DNA from: Trichostrongylus colubriformis
Taxonomy: Eukaryota > Nematoda > Chromadorea > Rhabditida > Trichostrongylidae
Direction of reading: 5' to 3'
NCBI GenBank assembly: GCA_963978905.1
Contig: OZ022259.1
Span: 54,206,727-54,270,726 of the forward strand
DNA: 64,000 bases
How positions within the stretch are numbered: the stretch's first letter is position 1; every line of letters begins with the position of its first letter. The notes below the pieces were generated by a model. It was not told where the DNA came from and ran no database searches. It worked only from the letters and a program-made list of their open reading frames with translations. Shown here in pieces: positions 23,541 through 58,919 of the stretch. Both the position numbers and the translations under genes were made by a program.

Positions 23541-23927
23541 GTTGTATTCATCGTGATCTTTCTCAGTGCTGTGTAATCTTTTTCAATACCACACCCCCCA
23601 AGAGTCATCGGGTTGTCGGGTTATTCACTCACGAATTGCCCGCGCTATCTGGGTTTCCCATCTCAACAAATCCTACCACTTCCTCTTCCCTTAATCCCCT
23701 GATGATCGCCGAAACCGATCCGTTAAATTACCTAATCGTACAGGTTCTTGCGGCTGAAAACCCTTTGTTGGATAGGGTAGAATAACATCTTCGCAACGAT
23801 TGCTCTATGTCATGTTTTACATAACTGTCCCAAAATACCGCTTGCGGGACTTTGGGGACAGTCGTCGACTGTATGAAAATTCGCAAAGAAATTGTCGTTC
23901 TTTTTCAAGATTTTTATGATGTAATCA

Positions 23928-23937
23928 TTTTATAGGC
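23928..23937 (+). promoter_or_regulatory. Probable trans-splice or first-intron acceptor
   Basis: CATTTTATAG ends two bases before the start ATG at 23938. In nematodes such an acceptor right before a first coding exon usually receives a spliced leader. A conventional 5' non-coding exon upstream is the alternative. Confidence 0.6.
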
Positions 23938-26432
23938 ATGCGCTTGCCTTGCGTTTTGCCTTTGGTGATTGGTGTGGTAGCCGGTGTGGCTACGGTACAT
24001 GCGGCTTGTCCACCCAATACATTCACATGCAAAGATGGCTCATGTATCCCGGAAGATTGGGTCGGTGATGGTGAAGCGGATTGTGATGACAGGTGAGTGA
24101 AATGACGGCCGATTGACGAATAGGCATTGTTATGAGCACTCCTGAACTGTGTTGAGCCGCTTTCATACTCTGCGGTGGTGCTGGCGAAAGGGCGTGGCTT
24201 CGTTCACATGCTGCAGCGAGGCAGAATGGCGGAGATGCAGAAATGAAACAGCCATTGTCGATGGCACAGCAGAGTATGAAGGCGACCTCATGTTGTTTAC
24301 AGTTTTTGGTTACCGTGGAGTTCAAAAACTCGTTAAAATAAGTTTTTCGAAAAATTGTGCCTGAAAATTCTTATCGGAGAAGTGGATTGGGTTGCCTTTT
24401 ATTTGTCAATATGCACTCGCCAACAGATCTTCATTTAGTAGGCTTTCTGGGAATTAATTTGTTTTTCCACGAGAATCCCGTTTCAGGGTCCCTATACATA
24501 TCTGACTATAAGCGGTCCGAAAGCGTTTTACTGATCGATAAATATTCTTCAAACCTTTTTGTGGATTCACTGTTTCTAAATTCTTCTCTCGCATCTCTAG
24601 AATTTTTTTATCAATGAATTCAATGGATTTGAGCTCATTGACCCGCTATCTCAGCGATAGAGTCATTCCGGCACTGTTTACTTGTTTTTACTTACTTATA
24701 TTCTAATCTTTTTAACTTGTGATTTGATCTGTTTGATATTTCTCATCAAAAACTGTTATCTATTTTATAATCAGTGTAAGGAGATAAATGTACATAAGCT
24801 ATTAGCTTCTACCTTGCAGATTACCCTCAAGTTGCATAACCGTTGTTAAAAGGAATATCAGGGGTTAGTGAGAAACATTTAAATATAAAGAAAAAAAAGT
24901 CGTTATAAAAGGCAATATGCACATTACTACGTTCGATTTTTGTGCGTTTATTGCCTGCTGAAGTACGTGATTGTATTAGATTTTGCAGTGTGAGTCAGAA
25001 ATATATGGGAGTTTAAATATCGAAAAAGAGCAGTTGTCGGGAGAATTCTTTAGAAGAGATCTGCATCGGTTACAAGGATTACTATCGGTTTTAAAATGTC
25101 ACAGCACAAGAAGAGCGGTGCTCTTCTGTTGGAGAGTCTACAAATACGACTGTAGACTCTCCAACAGAGTCTATAAATAAAATCTAATTTGTACATTTTC
25201 AGGCTTGATAAAGGCGCTAGGCGCCGAAAGCTTGCCTATAAGGCTAAAATATCTTTTGCAACCAATTTTTTGCAATCGGTTTTGTAAAAGCTGTTTTGAG
25301 TCTTTTGGAATAAATTTTGGAAGTCTCACATCGCCTTATACACATTCAGATCAACATGAGGCTTCGGGACAAGACAATGCTTAAAAAAACAATGCAATAA
25401 GCGATCCCTTCTACCCATGGTCAGTATCTGTCTTACTTCTGTAGAAGCCTTTCAGTTCTTTATATGGTTGTCGCTTTATTTCTGCGAGGATTTTTCCTTT
25501 AGCCCGAGGTCATTTAGGGCGACCGGACACTTTCTAATCCCCAGCCCCTGTCCCATCTTCGTTGATTTTTCCACCTCATCTGTCTGCTGGGAACATCCTG
25601 TTTTCCATATGAGTTGTCGTTGCCGCTTTAACGAGTTCAACAAAGAGTTCGGTCCTTTTTCAGGAGACGGGGCCCATTTCGAATCTGCGCACTTCTTCAG
25701 AGCTCCCGGACGCTGTCGCATATCCCGCTATTTTTTATCCCATCAAAGCATTAGTCTCTTGAGAGAGCTTAATTAACTTTTTAGATCCCCAAGTCAGTTT
25801 CGCGGATCCTAGAACGGGAAATGAACGAAAGTGAACCTGATGAGGCGGAAATGGGCAGGCAATCAGGAGTCGTCCGAAATTGGAAATTTGCTTGAAAACC
25901 TATGATTCATGATATATCCTTGAAAATTTTTACGTATGCTATTTATTCTCTATTTATCATTGCAATCCACTTCTGATTACTGTTTTTTCTAATCTTGTTT
26001 TTTTTAGTATCCATCGTAATATTTTTCATCTTCCTCCATTTCTGTCTGCATCAAGACCTATGGAGGAACTTTAAAACCTATGGAAAAGTTTAAAAAATCG
26101 CTTCCGTCCCTTATGGAGAAACTTTGCCGGATAAATTTGAAAACGATCACTTCTCTTCCAGTAAAGAGAAACTCTGACAGGAAAACTTTATTCCAAAAAA
26201 ATCGCGTTCCTTCCAAAAAAGTTCAATCACCTCGCAAAACCCTTTGATCTAATGCAGCCCATCTGGTCAATGGATCTCACCCATCACACGATTCTCGAAA
26301 ATTCGACAGAATTTAGATCCGATGAGACTGGGCACCCGGTTAGGAATCGAACAGCTAAAGAAGACGACCCATTCGATGAGATCGTCACATTGCCACCACA
26401 TTTGCGACATTCCAGCAAGGAACGTCATTCGA
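23938..26432 (+). CDS. Exons 1-2: signal peptide and LDL-receptor class A domain
   Basis: Residues 1-22 are a hydrophobic secretion signal ending VATVHA. Residues 24-55 form an LDLa domain: C24-x6-C31-x4-C36-I..W41..DGEADC49-DD-x-SDE. The acidic calcium-binding end (D48, D50, D51, then S-D-E across the exon junction) is kept. The fourth and sixth cysteines of the usual six are missing together; these normally bond to each other. Exon 2 (26317-26432) then gives a short charged linker. The SDE codons are restored exactly by joining 24092 to 26317, which supports this splice. Confidence 0.88.
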
Positions 26433-29400
26433 GTAAGTTTTGAAGAGCTTCTTAGTTGAACTTTCCGTCACGGTAATTTTCAACTAATTAACACTAAAAA
26501 GAATATTTTGCTATGCACGTATTCCTGAGCCACTTTGAGTAGACTCACGACCACGCCCATCGACAGAATACTACGCCCCACTGATGACGAGTTTGAACGC
26601 ATGGGCTTTGTTTTGTGGTCTTCGAGCGATTGCTGAAGTTCCCCAGATACCCAGAAGCTGCCAGTTCTCCCTTACGAGTAGACAAATTGTTATTGTTTGT
26701 CTTGGAATGAAACCGCGCTGCAACCGCACACACCTGGGTCCTATTTCGCATTTTAACCTACTAAACATGAATCGGTTTTTGCGCTGAGCTGTATTCAGCA
26801 GAAAGGCTGCTTCACATTCGACATCGATCTTCCTTGCTGCTCGTAGGCTTCAAACGATCTCGCTGTCTTTCGGTAAGTCCGCATTCACACTCAGCGTCGG
26901 CAGGGCGTAGCCGCGTTCACAGGCAGCGAGGCAGAGTGGCACGGGGAAGGTGCAGAGACGACGTGGGAGACAGCGTGGCATAGGCGGAGACGCAGAGTCA
27001 CGGAGCCACACCCTGCCACCGGCATCGCAGAGTATGAACACGGCCTTAGCACGGTGTAATGGCAAAAAGTAGTGTTGATTGACTTTTTCTGAGACAGTCG
27101 ATGTTTAGCCACAGATGCGCCTGAGGACGATTGCCCCTATGAGCATCAACTGAGAGTGGACGAGTGTGCGGAGCCGATCCTGCTTTTCCTTCGTGATGTG
27201 AACGCCATCTACTTTGAGAATTCGAGTCTTCTATCCGATAAGCACACGTGCGTTTTCAATCGAATTTTGATTAGATTCGAGTATTGATCCGAATCAAAGC
27301 CTTATGTCAATCTAAATATGTAAAAACAATGAGAACTCCAAATTTTATATCAAAAAACTCCCACAAATATAATGCAAGCAAAATTTCATCCTCCTGATGA
27401 GCTGTCGGCGCCTGGTCCCCTTCCTAAACCTGAAACTGAGCAATTTACATATCTAATGATAAAAACACTCACTATTCAGTAAATAGGTCAAATAAGTTAA
27501 TTCAAATCAAATAAATAATCAAAACCAAACAAATTCAGTAAATCGAGTAACTTGTTCCATATTAGGCTTAAGATGTGCTTGGCACTTATAGCTTGTTAGT
27601 AAGCTCAAGTTCCCTTTGCTACATTCTTGTGGAACCTTTTGAGTCTTTTGGAATAAATTACTAAGCTTCACATGGTTTTTATTTTCTTATTTGTTGATTG
27701 TTCACAGTATCGTTGGAGCGCAGCATAAGCACCAGTAAATGTTTTTTCTATGGATGAAAACTATAGACGAAAAATCAGAGAAAACACTCGCTGAACAATA
27801 TTTTTTTTCGGAACGGCTGGAAAACCTTGAAGAGTCACGCTAAAAAATAATTTCGCAATAGAATTTTGGCTAATTTTTACCATCCTATTTTTCTACGATA
27901 CATACATATATCCCGAAATGCGGATGAGCAAGTCATTCATTCATTATTCATGAGCCCATTCGATGAAATTCATCTCGATCGAGTTTTTCTAAAAATCTTT
28001 CGCTTTTGCGAAATTTTTCCCGTTTCAGTCAGGCGACCATTGGCAAAGGTTGCGAACTGATGCATGAGTATCAGATATGTACGCAAGGTGTTTCACAGTC
28101 CTGTAATCCTGATGAAGGAGTACAAGCATGGCGACAGGTGAGCTTATCGTTTGGTTATTGATTTATGGAAATCAGTTATAATTATGGCAGCTCTCATGAT
28201 CAGAATTCAACATTCGTAGCTTTGACGCCCCTGTGCATTTAGAATTAGTGAATTTTGCGGTTTTGTGGGAGAATGCACTTCAGAAAGGCGCCGTGCTTTT
28301 GACTCCCGTTTAGACCGCTGTCAGACTCTGCGATTTTGCGGTTCTGCGATTTTGCGTCATCGCTCTTTCGCACGCGGTACCACGACCTTGAGATTATGCA
28401 ATGCAACAGCTTCGCGTGCGGAAGTGCGATGCTGCAGAACCGCAGAATCGCAAAATCGCAGAGTCTGACGACGACCTCAGCTTCGTTTGGACGCTTGGTT
28501 GGCCCATACAGTCACGAACTGAGGTCGTACAATGTCCAGATTCGTAAATTGATGTCCCTTGAGGCCTAATAAACCAATGAGCCTTGAGGAAAGGCTTAGA
28601 TGGCCAGCACAGGATGAGCCATCCGTGTAATAGCAGCGCCATTACCGCATTACTCATACTAAGACTGATTTTTCAAGGTCGAAATATACGCTTGCCAATT
28701 GCTCATTCCAACCGTACGTGAGCATCATCAGTGTTTTGGTCGGCGACGAGATCCCAAGTGTGAAGTGAAGTGAGTTTAATGATTTTTTGGTAGCTAGAAG
28801 GGTCATGACGGGATACTTCAAAACAGGGTCTACGGTCTCCATATTTTTAGAGCTAGTTTTAGACTGCAATATCTTTTAATGGTTCTTCAATGAACCTAGC
28901 AGAATTCTAGAATGTTCGATGATGTAAGAAATTTTGTTCATCCACTCAGGTTCGATCCAATGGCATCACCATTTTGTCGTCTCGTCACCTCCGTCACTCA
29001 AGATGTCCATTGCACTCAGAAGTGAGGTGTTTGATAAAAATACATTCACTTTATAGCACTTCAAAATGTTTCCAAGCGTGAATAGGTTCGATATTCTGCT
29101 GCAAAATATTTGGAAGAACGTTGCTGCATTTATAGGTCAGCAAATCATCATGGCTATACAAAAACCTTCAGGAACATTGATTAAGGTCATTTACCATATG
29201 GTAGACAAGTTTCAAATAGGCCATCCGATTCCCTTTTCTAGAAATGGGGGAAAATAGTTCAAGCTTTCACAATTTCTTCCTCTTTCCAGAACTGGAAGCC
29301 GGTGTCATCTGGTTACAGAGACATGAAAAATGGATTGATAGGGTGACAAATGGAGCACTTGAAAGCAGTGATAGGGATAATTCGGATCGAATGTGAAGAG

Positions 29401-32400
29401 AATACTGAATATGAAAGCCGAGGCGTTCAGTAGTATGAATGTGAAGAAAAAACGGAATGATACAGTCAATAACCTTGAAAATCAGACGCTCTTCACGTTC
29501 TTCATTCTCAAAAGGGGCGTACGGGGCTGAAAAAAGGCGGGCTGGGATAAATTTGTCAGCAGCCGTCGAAAAATATGCTTCCTCCGAAGCTTAAAGGAGC
29601 TCCTCTCATAGGCCACATATGGTCCTCCCAGACTCGTAGATTTTACTCGGGTGATTTACACCGAGAGTTCTTATCAACTACGTTATCCCTATCACTGCCT
29701 CTAATAAAAAAGATGAAGCTAAGGACCACGCGTTTCATTTTTGTTCAAAATCGCCCAGTTGCTGCAACATTTGTAGGAGTTTAGCACTAAATCTTGATTT
29801 GCTGCACGAAAGTGCTCATCTGCCCAGGAAAGTCTAGTGCTGGCTATTTGATCCCGTGGTGGTATTAATTTCGAACTTTTCAATCACGAGCTATTTGTGC
29901 GGTAGCTGCACTATTCAGTATTGACCCATCTATACCCGCGCGACTTTTCAGTGACTATACTGAGAAAAAATCTAATAATTGTTTCATGGAAAAATCATAA
30001 ATAATGGTCGTCTATAGGTATAACAAGGACTGTTCGGAAGCTGCAGTCGAGATGCTCCAGCCAATCATCGACGAATCTGAGGAGATCACAGCATCTCTGA
30101 GATGTCGGCATCCAGCCGACATTACGCCACCCACAACGGTGATTACTCAATATCGTTTTATAATTTGTTATTACTGTATGCGCGAATCTGTGTGGTTACG
30201 TATTCTGCTCTTGAATGATCACAGCTCTTATAGGAAGCTCCAGAAGCAGCCGCGAATGAAGACGAAGAACCTGCCAGTGCTCCGTCGGCCAGAAGAATCA
30301 GTTCAGATGCGGTTGTCACCACCAGCAGTAGCACTGCTGTGACTCCAACAACCAGGCGGACCATAGGACCGGTGATTCAGATAACATCAATAGCACCGGA
30401 CCACGATTCCACCACGGCCATACCTATTGCGCCTGAAAACGCTGGCCGGGTACGGTTCGCAGACAGACCTGTTTTGATTTTTATCTCGAACCCTTTGAGG
30501 AAATTTCTAGAAGTTTTTGTGAATTACGGTAGGGATTCCGCAATACTTTTGGTAACACAAGGAGAAGTCTCTCGCATAGAATGACACTTGACCATCCACT
30601 GGGAAGCGCTAGGCGCATAACTGCCACTGACATACGATCCTCTGTGGATGTTGACGAGATCCGCCCCGGATTGCTCCGCCCACATCCAGAATCGTTTGGA
30701 ACTGTAGGTTTTTTCAGAAATAAGGCGCATGCATGCACAATTATTGTAGTTTTACATATGGGACGATTTTTGATTGGGAGAAGGGAGCTCTTCAAGAGGG
30801 GAAGGGGGGCTAGGGGGAACCGTTGTGAACTCTCTATGTGATATTTCCCATTATGGTGCCACCTTCAGAAAATATGTCTATTGATTTCCATCGATTAGCT
30901 CGGTACAATGAGTTCTTCCTTCATTCGACGACTCAAATAGCTCTTCAACATTGGGCCCGTTAGTATCATCTGTATCGATTCGAAAATCAATAATTTAGGA
31001 GCTGAAAATCAATATGAGTGATGCAGTGAACTCCCTGTACTACATCTATGATATCTGTTCATCGAACTACTCAAAGTCGCCGTACGCGACGGTTGCGGCA
31101 AAGATCTGCGCGCGACAGGACGAAATCGCGAAGCAGAGCGACTGTTACCAGAACGTACTTGAAAAGGAGAAATGCGCTATGAGAGTGAGTTTGTGTGAAA
31201 AAAGTAGACCAATATTTCCAATAATTCTAGCACCGATCGATTGACACTGACCGAAAACCACACTACAGTGGCTCGCTTAAATCGATAATTGATTAGTTGG
31301 CTTGGCGCTTTTTTATCGTTTTACACTGCATTATTTTTGAGACTCTTTGTTCAGTCGAGTCAAATAAATTCCCATTCCTGTATACAAGGATACCCACAAA
31401 CACTTTATCGATCCAAATTTATGCTAAATTTATGTGACAGCTAGAATTTTAGCGCTAAAAATGATGGATTACAGGATGCAAAGACCGAATGTGAAGCTTT
31501 GGAGGCATTTAATGCAAACCTCGATTGTGCCATTGTGACCATGAACGATCTGTGTGAAGTTGAAGCGCAAAACACGGTGAGTCAGAAGTCTGCTGCACAA
31601 GATTGTACGCGGTACAGCCCACTATACCACATCTGCAGTGATTTAGGCGTAAAATTATTTGTAATACTACTCAATTGCATCACTGCACTTTTTTACACAA
31701 CAGACCTTTTCGCCAGACATTTGGCTTGAGCCTATATCGTGGAGTGCGCAAAAAGTTCATAGAAAATTAGTAGAAGGTTAATGTAGGCGCGGTTCAGTGG
31801 TGCTGTACCACATATAATCGTGTCTGTTCTTGGATTAGAACATTTGCGTATGATTATTTATTAAAATATTATAATAAAATAATCACATATTTTGTCATCA
31901 TTTATATATGTAATTTGTTTTATTCATAAATCAATACAACAAGGAATGTGGTATATAACTATGGTTATTATTTACTGGTGACTGTTGTTAATTTCTGGCA
32001 ACTCAGAAAAATCAACATCACTTGACGGAACGCAAAAGGACATTCGGCTCGTTATACGAAATTGCAGGAAAAATTGCCAATCCCCGATTAATTATTGATT
32101 TTCCAGGTCATTGAGATTCAAGAGGGAATCAACGATATCATCATCGAGCGGAAATGCTTCGAAGCAAAAGAAAAAGCCGTTGCGACTATTGTAAAGAATG
32201 AGGATCCTGACGAGTTCCACTTGGACACTAAAATGCCCCACTGCACTGAAGATCAGGTTAATATCATCATAAAAATCGATAAATTGATCCTTTCAAAAAA
32301 ACGTGTACGAAGCTGGCGGTAAACAAGGAATAGGACCAACTACTTTTGCAAAAATCGATTTGAATTTCATTTTGTGAAAAAGTTTCACAGGTCCTTTTGC

Positions 32401-35400: not shown

Positions 35401-38400
35401 CAGTGACGTGGTGCCCACTTCCGATACTCAGACTATATTTGAAATACTAGAGACTAATGCACATAACCTCTCCACCGCACGAATCCCGCCCACTCGCAAA
35501 TCACGCCCATTGATACATACGGAAGTGGTGAAATACTGGGTGCACATGCGGTAGTAATGTCATGAACAATGAGTTCATTAGTAGCACGCTAAACTTTCGG
35601 ATAAGTCCTCGAAAACTTGTTGAAATATTTGAAAAACAGCCCCAGAACCCCAGAAGGACTAGGGGGGACTCGTCCATTAACACGTATTAGGCGACAGAGA
35701 AGCGCTCACTTCCTTCGCATTTTTTATAAGTTAATCGGTGATTCTCTGTAGTAATGTCGTAATCGGCTACCTCAATTATCAGCTTTACAGCAGATATTGC
35801 CGTTACCGCTGTCGGATTGTTCCAAATAGGATGTCCATTTATCCTTGAAAACCATTGATGGATAAAGTGTCAAAATCGATTTTTACAGGGAATTCATGGT
35901 GAAGCACTCCTGTGCAAATCCTTCTATTTGATTCGAGACACATTCACATGCGGTGAGAAAGCTGTCCAACAACAATGCGATCCCGAAGCTCTGCGGGATC
36001 TGGGAATACTCAAAAGACAGGTACGCCAATTGAAGTGTATGCTTACTGGCCACATCGCGCCCTCACAACTGCACTCATATGGGCGACCTCGGTAACCTAG
36101 CATTTCAGATGAGCGAATTGGGTGAAGAAGAAGGCTGTCCTCGTGAGCAACCGGCCAATTTGGATGCTATCATTGCTAGACCCGTGAAACGACCAACACC
36201 ACCGCCTCGTCCCAGGTAACCATAGATTTTATGGAAATTGCCACTACAAATTTCCATCCGAGGCGAAGAACTTTGGCCTTTTTCCGGCTTTTGACTTTAT
36301 TTTGACTTCACGGCTTTCTCTTGAATTTCTAACGGAATACGACTGAAGGCAAGTGCCAGGCCGAGTATGTGGGTGCAGTAGTGACGGCTTCTCCCGTTGT
36401 CCATTGTTGGGAATGTCCGCCGTCACTCCACCCTCACGTTTAGCTTGCCCACTTCATTTGAAGGCAGTGTTAAGGGTAATTCGAGCCAATTCGGAAGATT
36501 CATCAAATATGTAGGTGGACGTGCTTCGTAGTGCGGAACTGAAGGAAAAATGGAAAGAAATGGTCAAAAACCAGAGAAAACCCTTGCTGCCGCCATTCAT
36601 TCTCAAAAGAGGCGGCTTGGCATTAAAAAGTGGAAGCTGTTGAAGAAGACGGCTCTTGTTCCAGGGGCACTCTTTCTCAGCAGAATTCGCCATATAGTCT
36701 TTTTAGATCCCAAACTCTCATTTGGTTTGCTCATCTCAGGAGTTCTTGTTACCCACATTACCCCTATCACTGTCTTCAAAATAAATTTGAGTGGTGAAAG
36801 AGTGGTTCCATTTTGAAAAAGGCACCAAATAAAGGAGAACAGGGTTGGTCAATGTGAGTCGTTCCTATCGAAAATGAGAGCAGCTTTCGCTTTGCGTCTG
36901 CGATCAAAATTCATGATTGTGACTTCCACGGTATCCATGTTTTCATCTTTGACGGCACGGTAGATTCCTCGTTTTTGTTAGGGCTGCCTTCAAAAAAAAC
37001 ATGGAATTTTGGGCCAGTTTCATAATAATTCAGATCCTTTTCAAGCTGACTCCATTGATTTCAGTCGACCCGCTGTGGCCCCGATGGCTCGCGCGCTGAA
37101 CACCGCCGCTCCTATCGAGACCAGCTCCCATATCCCTGCTGCTGACGAACGGTCATCCAACATAACTGCCGAGACTTCACCATCAATGGCACCTCCAATG
37201 GCTTCACCGTCACCTGCTCATCCACCCGCAGTCTGCACGCCGGAGCAGCAGAAGAAGTGCGTATCAATCGATATCGATTTTTATTTCTTGAGTTTTTTCC
37301 AATCAATAATTGACCAATGACTTTTTCGCAAGTACAAATGTATTTTACTGTTCTACACTTTTTTTTTTGGAAACACGAAAAGGTTAAAGCATTCCATAAT
37401 GGTAATCGGTCTGATCAATACAATCAATTATCGATTGTAGATTCGAAGAGTGTGTACGACCACTCACTGCATTTCAACCACATCCATTGTCAGTTATCAA
37501 AGCACCACGACAAATCGATGAAGCATGCGAGGAATTCACAAAGTTCCAGGTAATCAATATATCAATCGAATATTCACTTCAAAGAGAACTTATTAATGGA
37601 ATTCATATGATGAATGTCTTTAGAAAGATGAACGTCCGAAAAGATCGATAAAAGGATGTTATTGAAAACGTGGTTATCGATCGATGTGTCGATTTTATTT
37701 GTTCTTCTGTTTAGAGCTGCGTTGCTGAAGTCACTTGTCATCCATTATGGGCTAAAGGCATGACAGCAATGTTCTCCTATGCTTGTGGAGAAGGTAGTGA
37801 AGGTTACAAGAAGGTAAGATAGTTATTGATTTTCTCCTCCAAGCCGTTCATACTTTGCGTGCTAGTCACGCTCACGTGTATCCAGGAGCGGTGTGAGCGC
37901 TGATACCAAAACAATTTAAAATTCTCACTTGCAAGCCCATTCGTGCAAACTGTCCCCGATGTACTGGAATCGAATGTATTGTGCCACCCTCGTTCTGCTC
38001 GTATTATCCTGTCTCTGAAGTGTTTTTTATTCTTGACAAGCTCCCAAATAACTGGCAACACGTCCACTTAGAAGCCCCGTTCTAACTTATGGGGTCCAAC
38101 GGTGCCGACTAACGGTTGCGTCATCCGTAGGAGTGGGTCAGCGGCTGATTGCGATTTATGGCACGGTTAGACGGCTACTAGAGCTGAATGGTAATATTTC
38201 CCTAAAGGATTCATTTGCACAATATAGCAGAAATCATCAAACATGTCAGACACCACGCAATTCATCTCCCCCTCCCCCCTCACCCCTCATCCTCATCCCA
38301 GTCATGAAAGTTACAGCTCATTTCGATATACCCCCCTCCCCATCCCCCCTCAGGAAATTGACAGCGCATTTCGATGTATTGCCACTGACATACTACATGA

Positions 38401-41400
38401 CCGTTTTATTTGGACCGTTTTCCCAAACACGCGATTGGGTCGCGTATGTCACCGGCGATATTTGTTGGCGGACCGCGATACTCACAACGGTGTGTATGCC
38501 ATCCAGAGAAGATAAAGTTCAGAATCCTCTTCACCTTATAATTTTTGGATTTCAGGTCCGACAATGCCTTCGAAAGGTCGTAGGTGAGGATACCGTCAAA
38601 GAGTGCGTGATGACATTCTCACGAGGAGCCCCCACTCAAGCCTGCTTATCCGCCAACGCTCTGTTAACCTGTTCTATTGCTCCCATACAGGTAACATCTA
38701 CAATTCTTCAGGTCGTATGTCATCGGAGATGTCCTTTGGCGCGAAAATGTGTTTTCCTGAAGCTCCGAATCAATTCATTCCAGACAGAGTGCGGTGAAGA
38801 AACCTCAGAATGGGTGGTTAAGTACGTCACAAAATTCGCAACTGCAATTGATCCTCGCTGCAAACTGGCCAGTCAGTTGCCAAGTAAGTTTAAGAGTTTA
38901 ATTAATGCACTGTTCCGGAAGGCCTGTTTCTTCATGGGATCCGCCTTTCCAGTCGGCAAAGTGATCGGCGTTGGATGTTCGGCCGAAGAAGAAGCAATAA
39001 TCGAGCATTGCGCCGCTCCACTCAATGACATCGGTAGCCGGCTCGAGGAGCTTTTCCAAGGCGGCTTACAGGCGATGATCAAGAACGTTAACAGTTTGGC
39101 ACCGGTCTTCGCGGGCGGTTGTAACCTTACAGGTACTTCATCCAGTTTTTGACTTTTTAAAAATTTCTTGTCCATGTTGTCCACGGGGCTTGAGGGTATT
39201 TTTCAAATAATTACAAAACATGTTGTCTATCTATCAGGCAGAGATGTTACTTCGTAAAGTGCGCGCTTTGTCAGGAGTGGGCGTGGCTAAAGCCCGTTTA
39301 TTGAACGTCTGTTGGGACAGACTGTAAGGTCACGTATCTCTTGAACGTGACTACATAGATATATGGACAAAAGGGACTAGAAATGAGGAATCAGCACCTA
39401 CCACCCGCTAAAAAATTCTGTTTGTTTTATAGAATGTTATTTATTTGTTATCTTGTTTTATATATTGTTATTTATTTTTTGTAAGCTTATTTCTTGATTC
39501 AGATGAGTTCCGTCAATGTGCATCGTTCTTGTTCACTGGGCGTACGCCATGCGTCGTATCTTCCTGCCTTATCCACGCTGGTGAAGGAATCTGTGGTCAA
39601 CCGGACCCCACGAAAGCTATCGACGATAATCTCAGTTGCGTCTTTGCACAGGTGCTTGCATGATCACATTGACAACAATCTCACGTTACATTACTTCTGA
39701 GGATGCCACCCCCATTTCACCGTCTTGTTGAACGGGATCTGGGATTGCCCACCGGTTTTATGGTCCTGTTGGACGGAATCTGGGATTGCCACACCCATTT
39801 CGCCGTCATTTTGGGCGAGAACATTTACTGTTTCCAATAGGGGACACTGCGAACGAAAAATTCAGGATTAGGAGCGAATTCTCCGGCATATTGTGGAAAA
39901 CTACGCCCAACATAACACTTATCCCGTTTTGATTTTTTTCAGTGCTAAATTGTATGCTATTGCTCGCTAACTCTGCGGGAATCCACGTCCTCTGTGATAA
40001 TTTTCTAGAGGTGTGTGCTATCAGGATAGGAATCTCGCGTAGCCGCATTGTGGTGGGTGTATGTTAATAGCGGTGTGTCATTTGGTTCTATAACGACATG
40101 TCTGAATAAGAAACAGGCTTAAGGGACCAATTAGTATGGCGCCCTTAGCACGCACCGATGGCACCGCTCGTCGAATGCTGTGGCGCGAATTTTTGAGCCT
40201 AATGGCACACATCCCTCTGAAGAAGTATCAATATTTTTTATAGATGCAGTTGTATATCACGATCACACTATGAATGATATGAGTCACAGCCTAGCTGATT
40301 CACCGGGGAGCCATGCCCCTTCGGATTTCTAATGTTACAGAGGGCATCAAAGGCTGCTTCTGATCACGCAATAGTAAAGTACTGAAACATAAAAAAGTTA
40401 AATGCGTCTTCACGCTTCAAATGTAGCTAAGAGCATTCAGTCCAATGGACCAGCCCAGTTTGTTGGTTCACTGGACTTTTTTTCACGGTTCCCATTTTGC
40501 ATCTGAAGGACATAGTGGTCTTTCCCTCAACTCCCACACAGGATCAAGCACGGGTTGAAAAATCCTGAAAAAAAGGGGATTGTAATTTGGGTTTTGAACG
40601 GGAGTGGGCCGTATTTGAAGAACTCCGGTCGAGGAATCTTTCTCTAATTCTATAAAAAAAAGACATGTGTTATGGCGAGGAGTAAGATTTGTAACGCTAC
40701 GAATGACAGAATTTGAATTTCTCGCTGGAGCAGTTCCGACTTTCCATTCCTTTTGCACCGCTTCTGACAGAAACGATCATTCTCTGCCAGATCTGCAGTG
40801 TATAGCTTACTTAGGCCTGAATTTGCATAGCCCCTAAGTTTTGGCCGATCCCTCGGTACCATGATATCTCTGTTTTTCCGCACGCATTGAGTGGATAATC
40901 AATCTGATGGATGATCTACGCCGTCGAAATACCAAGGTCTTGCAGTGGGGTCTTTTAGTGACCGAAAGTCCCAGGCAGTCACGTTGGAATTTCATGACGC
41001 ACTCCTGCTGTATTATCCGTTGAAATTACCTCAGTTAATATAGTTGTTGAATTGCAAAAAATCAAAACATTAGCATGTCCCCATCGGGTGTGTGCAGATC
41101 ATCATCGATCCTCTAGAGATGTTTGGTGGTGGGGTGTGGTTGTTTCAGCAAAGGAATTCCTCCTCTTATCGATCCATTAGGCCGCTCTCCACTTTGCTGC
41201 ATAATCGTGTTTTTGATTGATATCGATAATCATATTTTGCACTTGGTACGTGTAGAAAACAGTACAAAATATGGTTATCGATCGATGACATTTTCGGACA
41301 TCACTTTTAGAGGAATCGTTCACGGAAAATGAATTTTTCTGCCACACATATATTTACGTTGAGTTTCCTAATAAGAGCCGCATGCAAAGTTTCACGCGAA

Positions 41401-44400
41401 AAAGTGAAAGCTCGACTGAGATACAGCTTCCCTAATTCTCGGCCGGGTGGTTGGGGCCTCCGAGTAAAAGCCCCGTCCTGTCGTCCGCCGCGGTTAGGGA
41501 CGGAGATTGGGACTGTCTACGTAACCTTCTGTTCCTACAATGCGTCTCCGACCGCGGCGGACGACAGGGTGGGCACTGGCTCGGAGGGCTCGCCCACCCG
41601 GCCGAGATTTGTTGCGCTGTATCACAGCGGGATTCACATTTTTTGCGTGGAACTTTGCATGCGGTCCACATTAGGCAAATACAACATAAATATATGAGGA
41701 CCAGAAAAACTTTTTTTTCTTTTTTTTTCCTTTAAGCAGCATACTTACAGCACATATAGTTTCGTCAGTAATCAATGAGATCAGTAGATTTGAAGATGGG
41801 GGTAGCATGTTTCGAAAATTCCATGAACGCAACGCTTGACCCTGTTCCCACCCATAATATTGCTCTATTGTGCAGGTTCTGCCACTCCGTTACCTTTGAT
41901 ACGAGTCATTGATATGCATATTCACAGAACCACTTGTGTCACTTGTGTATGTGCATACAGAATCACGCCCTATCAAACATTCGCTGTGTCTGGTCGGACG
42001 AGATTGCACGCTTCAGGTTCAAGAGCCATCATTCGCGAAATGTGTCCGATCTACACTGTCAACAGTCAAGCAATTCACACTGAGCTCTTTCCGGATCATT
42101 CTACCGAAATTTATCGACTGTACTGAACAGATCGTACTTGCCAAATGCGGAGAAACGCCCATTAAGGTACGTTTTCCCACGTGTCCAGATGATGAACACT
42201 AATGAATAAGAAAATATATTTTTAGATACTTCGCGCCATGTCCTCACCTGATATTTGCCCAGTTGGTCCAGCACCAATTGTTCCCGTTGATAAAGCTCAT
42301 GTACCGCAACGTGTGGAGCCTCAGGTACGGTACTAGTAAACCAATCGATCGATTATCGATTGAGTACAGTGCTGATGTTTATAGATTCCCACATGCACTC
42401 CTGAAAAGCAACAAGCATACGATCAGTGTACACGACCATTCTACACGCAATACCGTATGCTACCTATAACACTTATAAATGAGATGGAGAAAATGGATCA
42501 GGTATACTGTGGCGGATACTGTCGTTGTAGTCTGAGAGATTCATTGACCTATTTAAGGTCTGTTCCGATGTGTCGATTATGGACGGCTGTTCGATTGCGA
42601 CGAGGATTTGTGCCTCAGCCGAGCAAATGGCGCTGAAGAAAATGATCGAGCAGCTTTGTGCCAGCCGAGAAGCCTATGACCATTACAAGATTTGCCTGAA
42701 GTCCGTGGCCACCAGCCAAACGGTGAGAGGTTTTTCTGGACAATTCGAAACGATTGTGAGCTGAAATTGTAGAAGAGGAGCAGAAAGTAAAGCCAAAACT
42801 TCAAAAATGAAGCGGATAAGGGGGGGGGGGGGTACAATTCCTTACTTTCAACTCGAAAACTGAAAGTATGCCTGAAGCATAGATGATCCTTCCGTTACCG
42901 ATGGGGGTGGGGCGGAGCTCAGAATAAAGATCATGAGCTGGCCAGCACTTTCTGTTTTGATAGCCACTCCTGGGGTCTAGAGAAAGTGATAACTGAGAAG
43001 ATATGTTCTTTGAAAAAAAAGCATTCCACTTCAGAAGAGCTGGCAAAACTCGCATCGAAAAAGCGCGACTTGGGGTCTTATCACGATTCGGCAGCACAGC
43101 GTGTCGTGCTGCCGCTCATCCGCCGGCAGAGTTGCCGGCAATGGCGGGACCACGTCCACGGCAGGCTGACTTAGCCCCTCGTCCGTCTGCGATCCACCAC
43201 CGGCTAGAGACGCAGAGGGGCGCGAAAGAAAACGGGGTTTTCGACTTTCTATTTCTCGGGTTTTCAACGTTTTGCATATTTTGCAGTCAAAGTTTGGGCA
43301 ATTATGTTACAAGCTTTCTTTGGTAGTAGTATAACAGTTTTGGCCAGTTAGCTAAAGTGTATTCTAATTTCTTCAGGGAGCTTCGTGTATGTCCGAATTC
43401 ATGACATCAACGCCTGGTAGCCGATGCTCAGCCATTCAGAACGCCGGTACATGCATGGCTAAGCAGGTTTGTTTCCACTGCTTAGAAATTTTCAAATTCA
43501 CAGAAATAGGGGTTCTGGAGGGCATTCGGACCTTGCGACATGTTACTCCTACTCACAAGTAACGCCTGTCGAACAAGAACTACTGATCATCTATACATAT
43601 CATTGACAATTTTTTAAATAAAGTATCGATTATGAGTCTCCCCGTTGCCAGAATAAGTGCCAATTTCCAAACTGAGACCCCGATGTCCTAAGGGATTTCA
43701 GAAATCATTTGAATGCTCATCAACTTTACTTCCAGGTCCGCGATACTTGTGGAGATGATGCACTGACGTACTCTTTTGCTGCCATGAATGACTATGCCCG
43801 ACTGATGGATAACCGATGCAGGGTAAGCCAGTTATTCATTGTTTGGAGTTCGCGGCTCAGACGATCGCGCGATTCACGCAATTCACCTGATCGATATCTA
43901 TACTTGCCGCCTAAATCGCGCGAGTCGCGCAAATTACTTGATCGATATGTATCTTTCCTGTTCCGCCTAAATCGCGAACTCTGAACAGTACCTTAGTATT
44001 TATTGGCATGATCAAAGAAATCCAATCGATTGCAGGTCGACAAGCCCACGGTATCGATCGCCACGGGCTGTTCTGAACAAGACATGGTCGCGTATCTCGC
44101 CTGTGAAAGTTCAATTGATCCGTTCAGTTTCCGACCGATCTCAATCATTGGGTGAGTAGCTGTCCCATAAGCCTGTCCAATGAATGGTTCCTTATAAGAG
44201 ACATCACACATTTTCAGTGACGGCTCCAAATGGGATGATATGTGTGCGGCTTTCTCCACATCATATAAGCCTTGTGTTGAGAAGATGTCCTGTAGATTCG
44301 AGCCAGTCTCGTCTGCCAATCTAATGCTATTCGATGGCATTTGCAACAGGTAAACTTGACAGAATCCCCTGTTTATGTGGATTTCTGGGGTGTGTACACT

Positions 44401-46511
44401 TGTGACAAAAATCGCTTCGCGGTGTCGCACTCGCGGCGCCATCAGTACGAGTCGTTTGGATTCCACTCAAGCTATCGACTCGCACTCGCCGCGGACGGTC
44501 ACGCGATTTTTTGTCATAAATGTTCACACCCAGACTTCTGTAGTAAAATGGGCGGCGCTCCGCATTCACACAAGGTACCCACCATAAACGTCACAAAAAC
44601 GTCTGAAAAAATTACTTTTTTGATAAAATTTCTAAGGTTTTCAATCCGATAAAGACAGGATTTCCAAATCACATTTTAGGCCGGTTACCCTTCGCGATCA
44701 GAAGTCATACGGTCAGTGTTTGTCCGACTACACGAACAGTGCTGCTGGTCAGAAATGCATCGCTGCCATGGCTAGTGTTGATCCCATGTCATCTGATGCT
44801 CCTAGCAAAATGTGCCAAGTGTACGTTATTCTCGCATTTTTACTTGAAAATATTAAACCACACAAACAAAACAAGCAATTAATAACTGTAATTGATTAAC
44901 ATCGAAACTGATCCGTTACATATAACTTCACTCATCCTGTTGACCATTATTGGAATGGATTAAATATCTTACTTGTATTAACAAACAAAAACACCTTTAA
45001 ACAAAGCACCGCCTGACACACCTCGCAACACGCCTGTATTAACAAGCAAAAACCACCGCCGAATACACCCCGCCCACTCACTGGCCACGCCCCTCGGGCA
45101 AAAGCAACATAGCCTGCAGGCCTTTCAACTCGGTTTCGATATCAATACTTCCAGCCTGAACACTGTCCTTGTCTGTGCTGCCAACGACATCGAAAAAGAA
45201 TGCGGTTATGGTGCATTGCTTCACGTTTACGAGCAACACACCCAATGGGCACAAGCCTACAATAAGACTTGTGTAATTAATTCACCGGAACCAAAGGTAA
45301 GCATTTGAATAAGCCTTTATTTCACTCAAAAGAGGTTGCACCCACAAGAATAAGGGAGAGAGGCTTTATACGACGGAAAAAGAGAGAGGGATCAAGTCGA
45401 AGCAGAATTTACAGCCAATTTGTGCTTTCGCGTAGAATTCCCTAATACTTTAGGTTACATTTACGCCTGTCCGACATGTTGTCAGCTGCACGCATAAAAC
45501 ATACGTATCGATTGCTGAGAGCCACCCCACCCAGTTAAACTTGCAAATGGCACCAGTTGTCAAGCAGCCATCAGCGACGGCTTTGTAGAGTTGTGAACTC
45601 TCCTCCTGTTATGTCACTGTCCCTCCCAGGGTTTTGCACCAACGGCTTCTTCTTTTGAATGACTCCCAAACGGCAAGCAGTTTTTTCGTTCATTGCCTTG
45701 CGTTTATACTATTTACTTGACAGTCGGTACCAACCAATACTCTGGATCAATCCAAAGACGTGGAACCACAGCATGTGACCCGAGACGAATTACCGCCACC
45801 GTCCATTCAGCTTCAAAAGGACACCACACCGATCGTAATCGGCGAGGATGTCACATCTGAAACCACGACGCCATTCATGGAGACGACCACGTCATCAGAA
45901 TCAACGACTACCCATCCAAAAGACATAACTACCACTACCGTTAAAGGTACGTGTCCTTCAAAGGTTTTTAAGGTGACTCAAATTGTCTACGACGTCGAAT
46001 CAATTACCGCTACGCTCCACAATTCCATGTGTATGGAAGGCTCAGGAGACCATTACAACCTTTAACGGACTCATTTTTGCTACACATGAAAGACCACGCC
46101 TAAGTGCAAAGTGACCGCATTGCGCGACTGCTTGCTCGGCTGTTATGTACCAAATACACTTAATGCCGAAATGCAGCAGTAGGGATCCCGATTTTTGAAA
46201 ATGACTGAACAAATTTTGAGTGGCGTGACAGTAAGAAGAAAAAAAGAAATGAACTAGCAAGAATCTAAGGAATGGGACCAACATCACCCTTCTTTCGCCA
46301 CAAGCAAACGAGCTGTCGAAAGTCCCCATCATTGCCCTATCGATCAATGCCACGTGAATCTATGATGTGTGACGGTTATACGCGGTGACCACGTGATGCG
46401 CTGCAGGGAATACGTTGTAGTGATTGACGATCCACTCATCCAATTTCAGGTTCAACTACGTCCATGCTCAGTGTGTTACTGGTACTCGTCATCACCTTGC
46501 GAGTGTTCTAA
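23938..46511 (+). CDS. Large LDLa plus cysteine-rich repeat protein, secreted and probably GPI-anchored
   Basis: Thirty-six exons chosen from splice signals join in phase to 4,725 nt (1,574 aa plus stop). Exons: 23938-24092, 26317-26432, 27109-27247, 28029-28137, 28678-28769, 28950-29021, 30018-30138, 30234-30454, 30580-30703, 30999-31184, 31475-31576, 32107-32256, 33103-33189, 33258-33391, 33959-34115, 35889-36020, 36109-36215, 37065-37256, 37441-37549, 37715-37813, 38556-38690, 38784-38883, 38953-39132, 39503-39651, 42017-42166, 42226-42324, 42385-42501, 42558-42722, 43377-43466, 43736-43822, 44036-44151, 44218-44349, 44680-44818, 45120-45296, 45724-45946, 46450-46511. The protein has a signal peptide, one LDLa domain, four Cys-rich modules and a hydrophobic tail. 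The modules resemble nematode CPG4/T20D4.11-like (DUF19) domains in style only; that link is inference. Several N-glycosylation sequons fit extracellular exposure. The least certain junction is exon 8/9. Function unknown; a matrix or cell-surface role is likely. Confidence 0.88.
24155..24289. repeat. TTCATACTCTGCG-family MITE in intron 1
   Basis: The left end is CCGCTTTCATACTCTGCGG and the right end is the inverted CAGAGTATGAAGGCGACC. Internal blocks AAGGGCGTGGCTTCG and GGAGATGCAG match the copies at 5130 and 26877. It lies inside the first intron of the large gene. Confidence 0.7.
25124..25169. ncRNA. Candidate RNA hairpin, 17-bp perfect stem
   Basis: The arm CTGTTGGAGAGTCTACA (25126-25142) is exactly the reverse complement of 25151-25167 across an 8-nt loop. 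One further A-T pair and a wobble extend the stem. It sits in intron 1, 30 bp before a hammerhead-like repeat. It could be a small foldback fragment or a structured intronic RNA. No further evidence for transcription on its own. Confidence 0.4.
25199..25345 (+). repeat. Dispersed repeat with hammerhead-like core, copy 2
   Basis: The best-preserved of three copies: AGGCTTGATAAAGGCGCTAG followed by GCGCCGAAAGCTTGCC. A GGCGC/GCGCC stem with a TAG loop stands between TTGATAA-like and GAAA segments, the arrangement of hammerhead stem II with its conserved flanks. The TTTTGAGTCTTTTGGAATAA block follows about 90 bp downstream. Confidence 0.65.
26877..27047. repeat. TTCATACTCTGCG-family MITE in intron 2
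   Basis: The longest copy of the family. The left end is GTCCGCATTCACACTCAGCG and the right end is the inverted GGCCGTGTTCATACTCTGCG. The interior contains repeated GCGAGGCAGAGTGGCAC-like and GGCGGAGACGCAG motifs. It ends about 60 bp before exon 3. Confidence 0.7.
27109..30703 (+). CDS. Exons 3-9: cysteine-rich module I and Ser/Thr/Pro linker
   Basis: Residues ~91-268 form the first module, starting [17 protein letters not shown] and containing twelve cysteines spaced irregularly, with mostly alpha-helical-looking stretches between. Exon 5 (28678-28769) uses an unusual TTTTTCAAG acceptor, but it is the only exon I found that links exons 4 and 6 in phase. Exons 8-9 (residues ~269-383) are a low-complexity Ala/Ser/Thr/Pro/Glu linker without cysteine, a probable site of O-glycosylation. 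The exon 8 donor needed for phase (CG|GTTCGC, 30455) is poor; a better-looking GTACGG at 30450 would be out of phase. Confidence 0.82.
27562..27680 (+). repeat. Dispersed repeat with hammerhead-like core, copy 3
   Basis: Diverged copy in intron 3. The stem is now GTGC/GCAC around a TTG loop, preserving pairing while changing sequence relative to copy 2. The TTTTGAGTCTTTTGGAATAA block is intact at about 27638-27657. Confidence 0.55.
28312..28478. repeat. GCGATTTTGCG MITE in intron 4
   Basis: The left arm GACCGCTGTCAGACTCTGCG and the right arm (inverted, ending GCAGAGTCTGACGACGACC) pair closely. The interior carries GCGATTTTGCG motifs on both sides. It lies between exons 4 and 5 of the large gene. 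Confidence 0.75.
29500..29700 (+). repeat. Dispersed intronic repeat, copy 1 of 3
   Basis: Shared blocks in order: ATTCTCAAAAGG, GGCGGGCTGGG, TTTTACTCGGGTG, GTTCTTATCA and CCTATCACTGCCT. The same series occurs at 32815-33052 and 36592-36780 in the same orientation and similar spacing. All three copies lie within introns of the large gene (introns 6, 12 and 17). No terminal inverted repeats are seen. Confidence 0.65.
30999..36215 (+). CDS. Exons 10-17: cysteine-rich module II
   Basis: Residues ~384-735. Exons 10-13 are bounded by phase-0 introns, as is exon 16, so single exons could be gained or lost without shifting frame. Cysteines recur in patterns such as DIC..KIC..SDC..EKC and GYxxC-type spacings between helical segments. 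The module ends [12 protein letters not shown] followed by a proline-rich stretch (KRPTPPPRP) leading into the next linker. Introns 12, 15 and 17 host repeats, including a 1-kb mariner-like MITE. Confidence 0.88.
32815..33052 (+). repeat. Dispersed intronic repeat, copy 2 of 3
   Basis: Contains GACGGGCTGGG, CCGCATATAGCCTTCCCAG, ATTTTATTCGGGTG, GGGGTTCTCATTA and CCCTTCACTGCCTTC, aligning along its length with 29500-29700. Located in intron 12, about 50 bp before exon 13. Confidence 0.65.
34364..35388. mobile_element. Mariner-like non-autonomous element, ~1 kb, in intron 15
   Basis: The ends TTGGGTCATTCCATAAGTGG and the inverted TTGGGTTATTCCATAAGTAA are flanked by TA (34362-34363, 35389-35390). 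The inverted similarity continues inward for at least 220 bp, including GACATTTAGGCTGGCGAAGA on both arms. This gives very long terminal repeats. No transposase motif is found in the centre. Confidence 0.85.
36592..36780 (+). repeat. Dispersed intronic repeat, copy 3 of 3
   Basis: Contains CATTCTCAAAAGAGGCGGC, CGCCATATAGTC, GTTCTTGTTACC and CCCTATCACTGTCTTC in the same order as the copies at 29500 and 32815. Located in intron 17. Confidence 0.6.
37065..42324 (+). CDS. Exons 18-26: Pro-rich linker and cysteine-rich module III
   Basis: Exon 18 supplies an Ala/Ser/Pro/Met linker. The module then opens [17 protein letters not shown], closely echoed by module IV's [16 protein letters not shown], which shows internal duplication. 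It runs to [12 protein letters not shown] at about residue 1,120-1,130. Exons 21-23 (38556-39132) sit in one stop-free frame, because introns 21 (93 nt) and 22 (69 nt) are multiples of three without stops. Exon 25 starts at the CTTCAG at 42011-42016. An acceptor at 41875 would introduce an immediate stop and was not used. Confidence 0.87.
39704..39810 (+). repeat. Local imperfect tandem duplication in intron 24
   Basis: ATCTGGGATTGCC occurs twice about 41 bp apart, and ACCCCCATTTCACCGTC / ACACCCATTTCGCCGTC recur about 83 bp apart. A small local duplication with no other feature attached. Confidence 0.5.
41308..41745. repeat. Foldback element, GTTCACGG family, in intron 24
   Basis: Best copy of the family. 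The left arm AGGAATCGTTCACGGAAAAT through GCATGCAAAGTTTCACGCG is mirrored on the right by the inverted GCATGCAAAGTTCCACGC and AACATAAATATATGAGGACC. The centre holds a second-order inverted GC-rich stretch around CGGCCGGGTGG. It ends some 270 bp before exon 25. Confidence 0.75.
42385..45296 (+). CDS. Exons 27-34: cysteine-rich module IV
   Basis: Residues ~1,140-1,480. It opens [19 protein letters not shown] and contains more than twenty cysteines, for example [17 protein letters not shown] and CRFEP..GICNRP. It closes with [12 protein letters not shown]. Introns 27-30 and 34 are phase 0; introns 31 and 32 are phase 2. Exon 33 has two alternative in-frame donors (44819 and 44825), which would add or drop two residues (VY). 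Confidence 0.88.
43070..43250 (+). repeat. Dispersed GC-rich repeat in intron 28, paired with 55370-55625
   Basis: TTGGGGTCTTATCACGATTC, AGAGTTGCCGGC, GCCCGTCTGC-like and GACGCAGAGGGGCGCGAAAG align with the reverse complement of 55440-55625 across about 170 bp. Inverted copies on opposite sides of the minus-strand gene. No coding capacity recognised. Confidence 0.65.
43890..43990 (+). repeat. Tandem duplication in intron 30
   Basis: Two units contain TGATCGATAT(C/G)TAT and CCGCCTAAATCGCG about 50-55 bp apart, in an otherwise unremarkable short intron. Confidence 0.5.
44387..44533. repeat. GGCGCC foldback element in intron 32
   Basis: The left end is GGGTGTGTACACTTGTGACA and the right end is the inverted TTTGTCATAAATGTTCACAC. 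The interior has TCGCTTCGCGGTGTCGCACT and GGCGCCATCAGTACGAGTCG, as in the elements at 53001 and 55636. Confidence 0.7.
45724..46511 (+). CDS. Exons 35-36: Thr-rich stalk and GPI-signal-like tail
   Basis: Exon 35 (residues ~1,481-1,554) lacks cysteine and is rich in Thr, Ser, Pro and Glu, as in a mucin-like stalk. Exon 36 encodes [20 protein letters not shown] and a stop at 46509-46511. The small residues followed by a hydrophobic run to the C-terminus look like a GPI-attachment signal. If intron 35 is retained, the frame continues 40 codons ([12 protein letters not shown]...) to a stop at 46063-46065, giving a tail without a membrane anchor. Confidence 0.82.
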
Positions 46512-58779: not shown

Positions 58780-58919
58780 ATAAAAATACAACAAAAAAGT
58801 AATAATGTAAGTTGCTGCTAGTACGCTGAGTTATCGGCAAGCTTCGGTCTCGGACGGGACTCGAACCCGAGATGTATGCTTTTCGGGCATATGTGCTAAT
58901 CCATTACACTACCAAGACC
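58780..58919 (-). repeat. tRNA-derived SINE (family 2), with near-complete tRNA head
   Basis: On the minus strand, 58919 to 58846 folds as a tRNA. It has an 8-bp acceptor stem (GGTCTTGG/CCGAGACC with one wobble), a 5-bp anticodon stem TATGC/GCATA with loop CCGAAAA, and a T arm with GGTTCGAGTCC. The would-be anticodon is GAA, but position 33 is C instead of the invariant U. The acceptor is one pair too long. The flank after the tRNA shares sequence with 4441-4500. I read it as a tRNA-derived SINE head rather than a working tRNA. A T-rich tail follows. Confidence 0.65.

What the first reader, a model, noticed from the sequence alone, without database searches (positions are those of the whole stretch)
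23938..46511. A 36-exon, ~1,574-aa surface protein: LDLa head, four Cys-rich modules, GPI-like tail
The exons were chosen from splice signals and all but one junction fit both consensus and phase, ending in a complete frame. The combination of a single N-terminal LDLa domain, tandem cysteine-rich modules with Pro/Thr linkers and a GPI-type tail is an uncommon architecture that I cannot match to a named protein. Modules III and IV share opening motifs (CTPEQQKKFEEC / CTPEKQQAYDQC), showing internal duplication. In a parasite this would be an exposed antigen or matrix receptor candidate.
Basis: partly seen in the sequence, partly recalled or inferred. Interest (0 to 1): 0.75.

Follow-up and report, generated by a model that had tools for sequence, protein, structure and literature searches.

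The report
Conserved nematode multi-DUF19 surface protein (F44E2.4)
This is a real, complete gene for a large cysteine-rich protein, probably tethered to the outside of cells, that free-living, plant-parasitic and animal-parasitic roundworms share; it is known only as an uncharacterised protein and is not specific to parasites.

Summary
The gene is real. Homology-guided modelling gives 35 exons (not 36) at 23938-46511, + strand: 1,520 aa, one open frame, 34 GT..AG introns. It matches a Haemonchus contortus protein at 86% identity over its whole length. One search lists 54 orthologous clusters, from Strongylida, Caenorhabditis, Pristionchus, Strongyloides, plant parasites, filariae, an ascarid and Plectus, so it is not a parasite novelty. 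A Dirofilaria member is named "Protein F44E2.4" by its source, which points to C. elegans F44E2.4.

The "four modules" are seven DUF19-type units with 12, 8, 12, 12, 12, 12 and 12 cysteines. The LDLa head is a 4-Cys variant. The tail fits a GPI signal. Constraint peaks in units IIb-IIIb (100 of 131 near-invariant non-Cys columns). Exons 26-29 encode exactly unit IVa between phase-0 introns; 8 of 9 named Caenorhabditis proteins lack it.

Function is unproven. The best lead is that F44E2.4 clusters with cuticle/moulting genes (PMC5659845), so I favour a GPI-anchored epithelial protein acting in apical extracellular matrix. CPG4 membership failed its cut-off. Structure prediction was not accepted, and the own-genome protein search did not complete.

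The parts
23938..46511 (+). Whole coding span: 35 exons, 1,520 aa. Exons 23938-24092, 26317-26432, 27109-27247, 28029-28137, 28678-28769, 28950-29021, 30018-30138, 30234-30449, 30999-31184, 31475-31576, 32107-32256, 33103-33189, 33258-33391, 33959-34115, 35889-36020, 36109-36215, 37065-37256, 37441-37549, 37715-37813, 38556-38690, 38784-38883, 38953-39132, 39503-39651, 42017-42166, 42226-42324, 42385-42501, 42558-42722, 43377-43466, 43736-43822, 44036-44151, 44218-44349, 44680-44820, 45155-45296, 45724-45946, 46450-46511
   Evidence: tblastn support; boundaries checked
23926..23937 (+). Acceptor-like site ATTTTATAG ending 2 nt before the ATG: possible trans-splice or 5'-UTR acceptor
   Evidence: score 3.98; 219 + strand sites in the window score as high, so weak evidence
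23938..24003 (+). Signal-peptide-like hydrophobic N-terminus, residues 1-22
   Evidence: hydropathy above 1.6 at residues 1-25; no signal-peptide predictor available
24004..26332 (+). LDLa head, residues 23-57, exons 1-2; four Cys (24, 31, 36, 49)
27126..30120 (+). Unit I, residues 97-262, 12 Cys, exons 3-7
30234..30449 (+). Thr/Pro-rich linker between units I and IIa, one phase-0/0 exon (exon 8)
   Evidence: poorly conserved
31011..32178 (+). Unit IIa, residues 345-460, 8 Cys: matches the core unit from C5 onward
32230..36156 (+). Unit IIb, residues 478-672, 12 Cys
   Evidence: strongly conserved
37228..38879 (+). Unit IIIa, residues 747-902, 12 Cys, DUF19
38961..42270 (+). Unit IIIb, residues 907-1078, 12 Cys, longer C2-C3 loop; highest mean identity of all segments except the LDLa
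   Evidence: Cys-order test alone not significant
42385..43822 (+). Unit IVa, residues 1097-1249, 12 Cys, DUF19; encoded exactly by exons 26-29 between phase-0 introns; missing in 8 of 9 named Caenorhabditis proteins
44063..45284 (+). Unit IVb, residues 1259-1422, 12 Cys, DUF19
45724..45946 (+). Thr-rich juxtamembrane stalk, exon 34 (residues 1427-1500)
46450..46511 (+). Hydrophobic C-terminal GPI-type signal and stop (exon 35)
   Evidence: hydrophobic end in 37 of 54 orthologue clusters

Best explanation
Shown: the gene is the trichostrongyloid orthologue of a family present across chromadorean nematodes and labelled F44E2.4 after C. elegans. It encodes a secreted chain: signal peptide, a 4-Cys LDLa, seven DUF19-type disulfide units in blocks I, IIa-IIb, IIIa-IIIb and IVa-IVb, flexible Thr/Pro linkers, a Thr stalk and a hydrophobic tail. 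Inferred: the tail is replaced by a GPI anchor, leaving a long chain of cystine-locked units on the apical face of epithelia. The near-invariant centre (IIb-IIIb) is the binding surface; the LDLa, held by calcium, and the outer units are secondary contacts or spacers. Most likely role: organising or docking apical extracellular matrix (precuticle or cuticle) during each moult.
For: Identity and architecture: (tree: window sister to Haemonchus, support 1.000). Seven units: Cys-order permutation 0 of 100,000 for six units together, 13 of 200,000 for I, 46 of 200,000 for IIb; core-profile comparison P 93.3 (I), 89.9 (IIa), 91.2 (IIb), 86.9 (IIIb), against at most 6.9 for the reversed profile; 13 of 13 submitted IIIa/IVa/IVb sequences hit PF01579. 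Conservation: 80 of 84 Cys columns at 90% or more over 45 proteins; 100 of 131 near-invariant non-Cys positions in IIb-IIIb. Tail: 37 of 54 clusters end in a hydrophobic segment; in the window protein only the two termini exceed the hydropathy threshold. Function: F44E2.4 rises 2.48 on average in daf-21 RNAi worms and falls in coexpression cluster Daf-21up_2 with bli-1, sqt-1, lpr-3, mlt-11, ptr-4 and acn-1, a cluster the authors call moulting-cycle and cuticle genes (PMC5659845, section 16 part 1 read).
Against: The functional step rests on one coexpression cluster, which the authors ascribe to slowed development and which they say also includes pharynx and intestine development. No C. elegans protein appears; the F44E2.4 link is one source's name for a Dirofilaria protein (P0072) plus my recall. 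Of 54 clusters, 17 lack the hydrophobic end: three (Heterodera P0071, Globodera P0073 and P0077) have a hydrophobic stretch followed by 11-14 residues with basic residues; I take the rest to be truncated models. No GPI or signal-peptide predictor, structure or expression data were available. IIIb alone fails the simple Cys-order test (12,735 of 200,000).
Confidence: 0.5

Rival explanations
1. A GPI-anchored co-receptor for a secreted signal, working like GFR-alpha or RGM proteins: helical cystine-rich units bind a ligand and present it to a transmembrane partner.
For: GPI-type end, tandem Cys-rich units, a near-invariant centre; weak RGM_N matches to DUF19 units (E 0.36 in Brugia; E 0.022 in one unit; 2 of 28 proteins).
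Against: All RGM_N matches whose scores I saw are far below cut-off (11.6 bits versus 24.2); no solved structure resembles the units by sequence (best E 0.28, unrelated); no fold prediction could be run.
Confidence: 0.15
2. A lipoprotein or nutrient uptake receptor that uses its LDLa module like LDL-receptor proteins.
For: LDLa above Pfam cut-off and 71% mean identity to the window over 34 of 44 orthologues; the acidic calcium-site residues D44, D48, D54 and E55 (site assignment recalled from LDLR) are kept in most.
Against: Only one LDLa, lacking C4 and C6 in the forms seen; no EGF or YWTD-type domain (Pfam); no internal transmembrane-like segment in the window protein, so no endocytic tail of its own.
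Confidence: 0.1
3. A parasite-specific exposed antigen or host-matrix receptor.
For: The window species groups with Haemonchus; a cell-surface location is plausible.
Against: Free-living and plant-parasitic nematodes share the whole architecture at 46-59% identity; the protein is conserved rather than diversified at the host interface.
Confidence: 0.04
4. A chondroitin proteoglycan of the CPG4 type (eggshell or embryo matrix).
For: CPG4 profile touches unit IIIa (27.8-30.2 bits).
Against: Below the 32.7-bit cut-off; only one Ser-Gly in 1,520 residues and not in an acidic setting.
Confidence: 0.03
5. A gene-model artefact that joins several genes.
For: No RNA evidence is available; the locus is repeat-rich with introns up to 2,365 bp.
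Against: Separately annotated orthologues are single proteins of about 1,280-1,620 aa carrying the same modules in the same order.
Confidence: 0.02

Closest known systems
C. elegans F44E2.4 family (Haemonchus V3C99_000648, Cylicocyclus, Brugia, Dirofilaria 'Protein F44E2.4' and others)
   Same: Same module order, length class, Cys framework and C-terminal type; 86% identity to Haemonchus, 46-59% to free-living relatives
   Different: 8 of 9 named Caenorhabditis proteins lack unit IVa. The C. elegans sequence itself was not compared; none was in the search lists
Small secreted DUF19 (T20D4.11-like) proteins of C. elegans
   Same: Same 12-Cys DUF19 unit (PF01579 above cut-off in IIIa and block IV)
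   Different: Those listed for C. elegans are 140-220 aa (PMC3534327 Table 2 passage: 51 genes; PMC8410859 passage, says more than 80 paralogues); this has seven units, an LDLa and a GPI-type tail
CPG4 (PF15481)
   Same: Partial profile match over the first half of unit IIIa
   Different: Below cut-off; no glycosaminoglycan-type Ser-Gly sites
LDL-receptor family
   Same: One LDLa module
   Different: No ligand-binding array, no EGF or propeller domains, 4-Cys LDLa, no transmembrane segment apart from the C-terminal signal

Membership tests
F44E2.4 orthologue group | Full-length colinear homology with the same module order | tested here: met
F44E2.4 orthologue group | One copy per genome | tested here: inconclusive
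   Each named species gave one cluster except Globodera pallida (two); searches are limited by protein length. The own-genome protein search did not complete (first asked, last); the one answered family search also failed in all 14 controls
DUF19 (PF01579) | Profile score above 23.2 bits | tested here: met
   43.5 (block III) and 36.8 (block IV) bits; 13 of 13 IIIa/IVa/IVb sequences match
DUF19 (PF01579) | Units I, IIa, IIb, IIIb are DUF19 by Pfam itself | tested here: not met
   No Pfam hit for pieces covering I and II; support comes from profile comparison, P 87-93
LDLa (PF00057) | Profile score above 24.1 bits | tested here: met
   37.0 bits; 22 of 28 members match
LDLa (PF00057) | Six cysteines in three disulfides (recalled) | tested here: not met
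   Four Cys in 33 of 33 matches of a pattern written for this form; 34 of 35, one has three
CPG4 (PF15481) | Profile score above 32.7 bits | tested here: not met
   27.8 bits; 30.1 for P0024, which holds the best E-value among 28 members; 30.2
GPI-anchored protein | C-terminal hydrophobic segment without cytoplasmic tail | tested here: met
   Window protein and 37 of 54 clusters; 17 of 54 without, at least three of them possibly real exceptions
GPI-anchored protein | Omega-site prediction or biochemical release | not testable with these tools
   No predictor available
LDL-receptor family | EGF and beta-propeller domains and an endocytic cytoplasmic tail | tested here: not met
   Pfam; hydropathy
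RGM | RGM_N profile above 24.2 bits | tested here: not met
   11.6 bits; single weak unit match E 0.022

The most novel reading that the evidence does not exclude
The F44E2.4 family is an ancient chromadorean, GPI-anchored scaffold of seven DUF19 units that docks or patterns apical extracellular matrix at each moult, which would give the large DUF19 family its first molecular role: a disulfide-locked matrix-binding unit whose IIb-IIIb array is the conserved ligand surface.
Probability: 0.3. Interest if true: 0.6.

Novelty: new member of a known kind. Interest (0 to 1): 0.35.

Why it matters
DUF19 is a large family in C. elegans (51 genes in one survey, more than 80 paralogues in another paper) with no known molecular role. 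This multi-unit protein has one colinear relative in almost every species listed and is far more conserved than a redundant family member would suggest, so a null in a laboratory nematode could give DUF19 a function. It also shows that a gene that looked like a parasite antigen is a shared nematode protein.

Tried and rejected
Unguided gene finding over-predicted (124, 104 and 69 exons at low exon penalties; 39 and 32 at higher ones) and gave a different 3' end; a first hint-weighted run kept wrong exons (for example 38250-38690 and 24820-24863). The final boundaries were set by hand and checked against orthologues, so they are not an automatic prediction.

CPG4, LDL-receptor, RGM and parasite-antigen readings were considered and ranked low for the reasons given. 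Sequence searches of solved structures found LDLa matches in the 60 rows shown of 99 and nothing credible for the units (three rows, best E 0.28). Unit-by-unit single-group comparison was strong only for IIIa, IVa and IVb (P 98.0-98.7); I-IIIb reached 79.7 and the others with I 0.2-58; linker controls were at most 0.3. Only after pooling the core did I, IIa, IIb and IIIb rise to 87-93; IIIb-IIa (0.4), IIIb-IIb (7.7) and IIa-IIb (18.3) compared directly stay weak.

IIIb fails the plain Cys-order test; reading it as having lost C9 and gained Cys 985 is post hoc. The 5' acceptor-like site is weak evidence (219 equal or better on the + strand). Nearest AATAAA after the stop is 722 bp away. ORFs in the window outside the gene and in both flanks gave no recognisable neighbour, so synteny was not used; only ten window ORFs went to Pfam and the flank ORFs were only read by eye. 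Paper searches for DUF19 do not match the spelling DUF-19 that at least one paper uses (against 88), so literature coverage is incomplete; F44E2.4 itself is in two papers of the held library. Passages seen in PMC8021180 and PMC6055854 concern DUF1943 and are irrelevant. The H. contortus paper PMC9952990 lists CPG4-domain and LDLa genes, but none could be tied to this gene.

Full report
Gene model. The window lies at 54.21-54.27 Mb of contig C6 in a 331-Mb, 52-contig genome. tblastn of the Haemonchus contortus hit P0001 placed exon after exon along 23938-46508. With boundaries set from those alignments and splice sites, the model has 35 exons, 34 GT..AG introns in consistent phase, 1,520 residues and one stop. 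Mean donor and acceptor scores are 5.38 and 4.55, against 0.25 and -0.65 for all GT and AG in the span; the weights are home-made from recalled nematode consensus. Identity is 85.8% to P0001 over the full length, 78% Nippostrongylus (from residue 62), 75% Cylicocyclus, 66% Dictyocaulus, 57% Auanema and 46-47% Pristionchus mayeri and P. entomophagus.

Range. A profile of 15 members reached Steinernema, Strongyloides and Rhabditophanes; the other 26 of its 53 hits are LDLa-only proteins matching 2-4% of the query. A search from the Steinernema core lists 54 clusters at E <= 1.2e-120, which include all 28 found before and add Ditylenchus, Aphelenchoides, Bursaphelenchus, Heterodera, Globodera, Meloidogyne, filariae, Thelazia, Syphacia, Parascaris and Plectus. 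One of the 54 (P0025) has no source name. No enoplean nematode is listed, but the searches need shared 5-letter words and a similar length, so absence is not shown. P0072 (Dirofilaria immitis) is called 'Protein F44E2.4' by its source; no C. elegans protein is in any list, so the link to C. elegans rests on that name and on my recall. A FastTree tree of 45 proteins (44 of 54 clusters plus the window; 1,287 columns) puts the window with Haemonchus (support 1.000), then Nippostrongylus (0.992), and recovers filariae, Caenorhabditis, Pristionchus and Strongyloides groups; several deep nodes are weak (0.288, 0.399) and Heterodera, Globodera and Meloidogyne fall apart from the other plant parasites.

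Units. The window protein has 85 Cys: one in the signal peptide, four in the LDLa and 80 in seven units: I 12, IIa 8, IIb 12, IIIa 12, IIIb 12, IVa 12, IVb 12. IIIa, IVa and IVb are DUF19: all 13 sequences submitted from six species keep the 12 Cys and all 13 match PF01579. The order of Cys gaps is shared among the six 12-Cys units (0 of 100,000 permutations), and separately for I (13 of 200,000) and IIb (46 of 200,000), but not for IIIb (12,735 of 200,000). Against a pooled core profile of 123 rows, I gives P 93.3 (E 2.7e-7), IIa 89.9 (E 1.7e-6, aligned from C5 onward), IIb 91.2 (E 1e-6), IIIb 86.9 (E 4.2e-6); the reversed core gives P 0.6-6.9. IIa thus looks like a unit that lost its first four Cys. 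Over 45 proteins, 80 of 84 Cys columns are at least 90% Cys; the others are residue 99 (31 of 35) and 1137, 1146 and 1153 (36 of 44 each). Losses by substitution rather than gap are few and mostly in unit I of Heterodera, Globodera, Meloidogyne, Cylicocyclus and Pristionchus mayeri.

LDLa. The module has C1, C2, C3 and C5 but not C4 or C6, a pair that forms one disulfide in ordinary LDLa modules (recalled). The acidic calcium-site residues are kept in most members; Strongyloides is more diverged.

Tail. The C-terminus is a Thr-rich stalk followed by a hydrophobic end; 37 of 54 clusters show such an end, 17 do not. Of those 17, three (Heterodera P0071, Globodera P0073 and P0077) continue 11-14 residues beyond the hydrophobic stretch; I read the rest as truncated models. 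Apart from the two termini, no segment of the window protein passes the hydropathy threshold. There are ten N-glycosylation sequons and one Ser-Gly.

Evolution inside the protein. Units IIb, IIIa and IIIb hold 100 of 131 near-invariant non-Cys columns; linkers and stalk are poorly conserved (mean identity 22-42%). Unit IVa is bounded by phase-0 introns at residues 1096.0 and 1249.0, so it is a removable cassette. It is missing in 8 of 9 named Caenorhabditis proteins and kept in C. auriculariae, Pristionchus, Auanema and, in the tree alignment, in clade III and IV members. The unnamed P0025 also lacks it. Haemonchus placei P0006 and Angiostrongylus costaricensis P0008 show the same gap, probably from incomplete models, which is a caution for the loss claim.

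Function. F44E2.4 is mentioned in two papers of the held library. In PMC5659845 (section 16, part 1 read) it rises on average 2.48 (SD 2.22) in daf-21 RNAi worms and is placed in cluster Daf-21up_2, which the authors attribute to slowed development and describe as moulting-cycle and cuticle genes, with pharynx and intestine development too. In PMC2907687 (abstract and one passage) it is only in a list of genes tested by RT-PCR. PMC8410859 (passages) says C. elegans has more than 80 DUF-19 paralogues without RNAi phenotypes and that one T20D4.11 overexpression line was shorter and growth-retarded. PMC3534327 (passage) lists 51 DUF19 genes, 140-220 aa. From this I infer an apical-matrix role; it is not shown.

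Not done. Structure prediction was not accepted, the own-genome protein search did not complete (listed under Tried and rejected), and the family search that was answered found nothing in its controls either. Confidence 0.5 is for the whole statement; the identity and architecture part alone I hold at about 0.95, the matrix role at about 0.35.

Noticed in passing
window 58845-58919, - strand: tRNA-Phe (GAA), found by ARAGORN and by Rfam (52.1 bits at 58846-58918).
   Followed up: no
window 34431-34576 / 35162-35307; 28320-28376 / 28413-28469; 41364-41403 / 41639-41678: Inverted-repeat (MITE-like) elements inside introns of the gene, arms 146, 57 and 40 nt.
   Followed up: no
window 7291-7821, - strand: ORF with motifs that I recall from mariner-type transposases (HDNARPH; YPDMAPTDYHLF), apparently decayed; Pfam gave no match above cut-off.
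   Followed up: partly
window 48635-49006, - strand: ORF rich in Leu/Arg/Glu that looks like a coiled coil with a basic Ser/Pro tail, possibly an exon of another gene; no Pfam match above cut-off.
   Followed up: partly
window 42385-43822: Four exons encoding exactly one DUF19 unit (IVa) between phase-0 introns; the same unit is missing in most Caenorhabditis proteins, an apparent clean cassette loss.
   Followed up: partly
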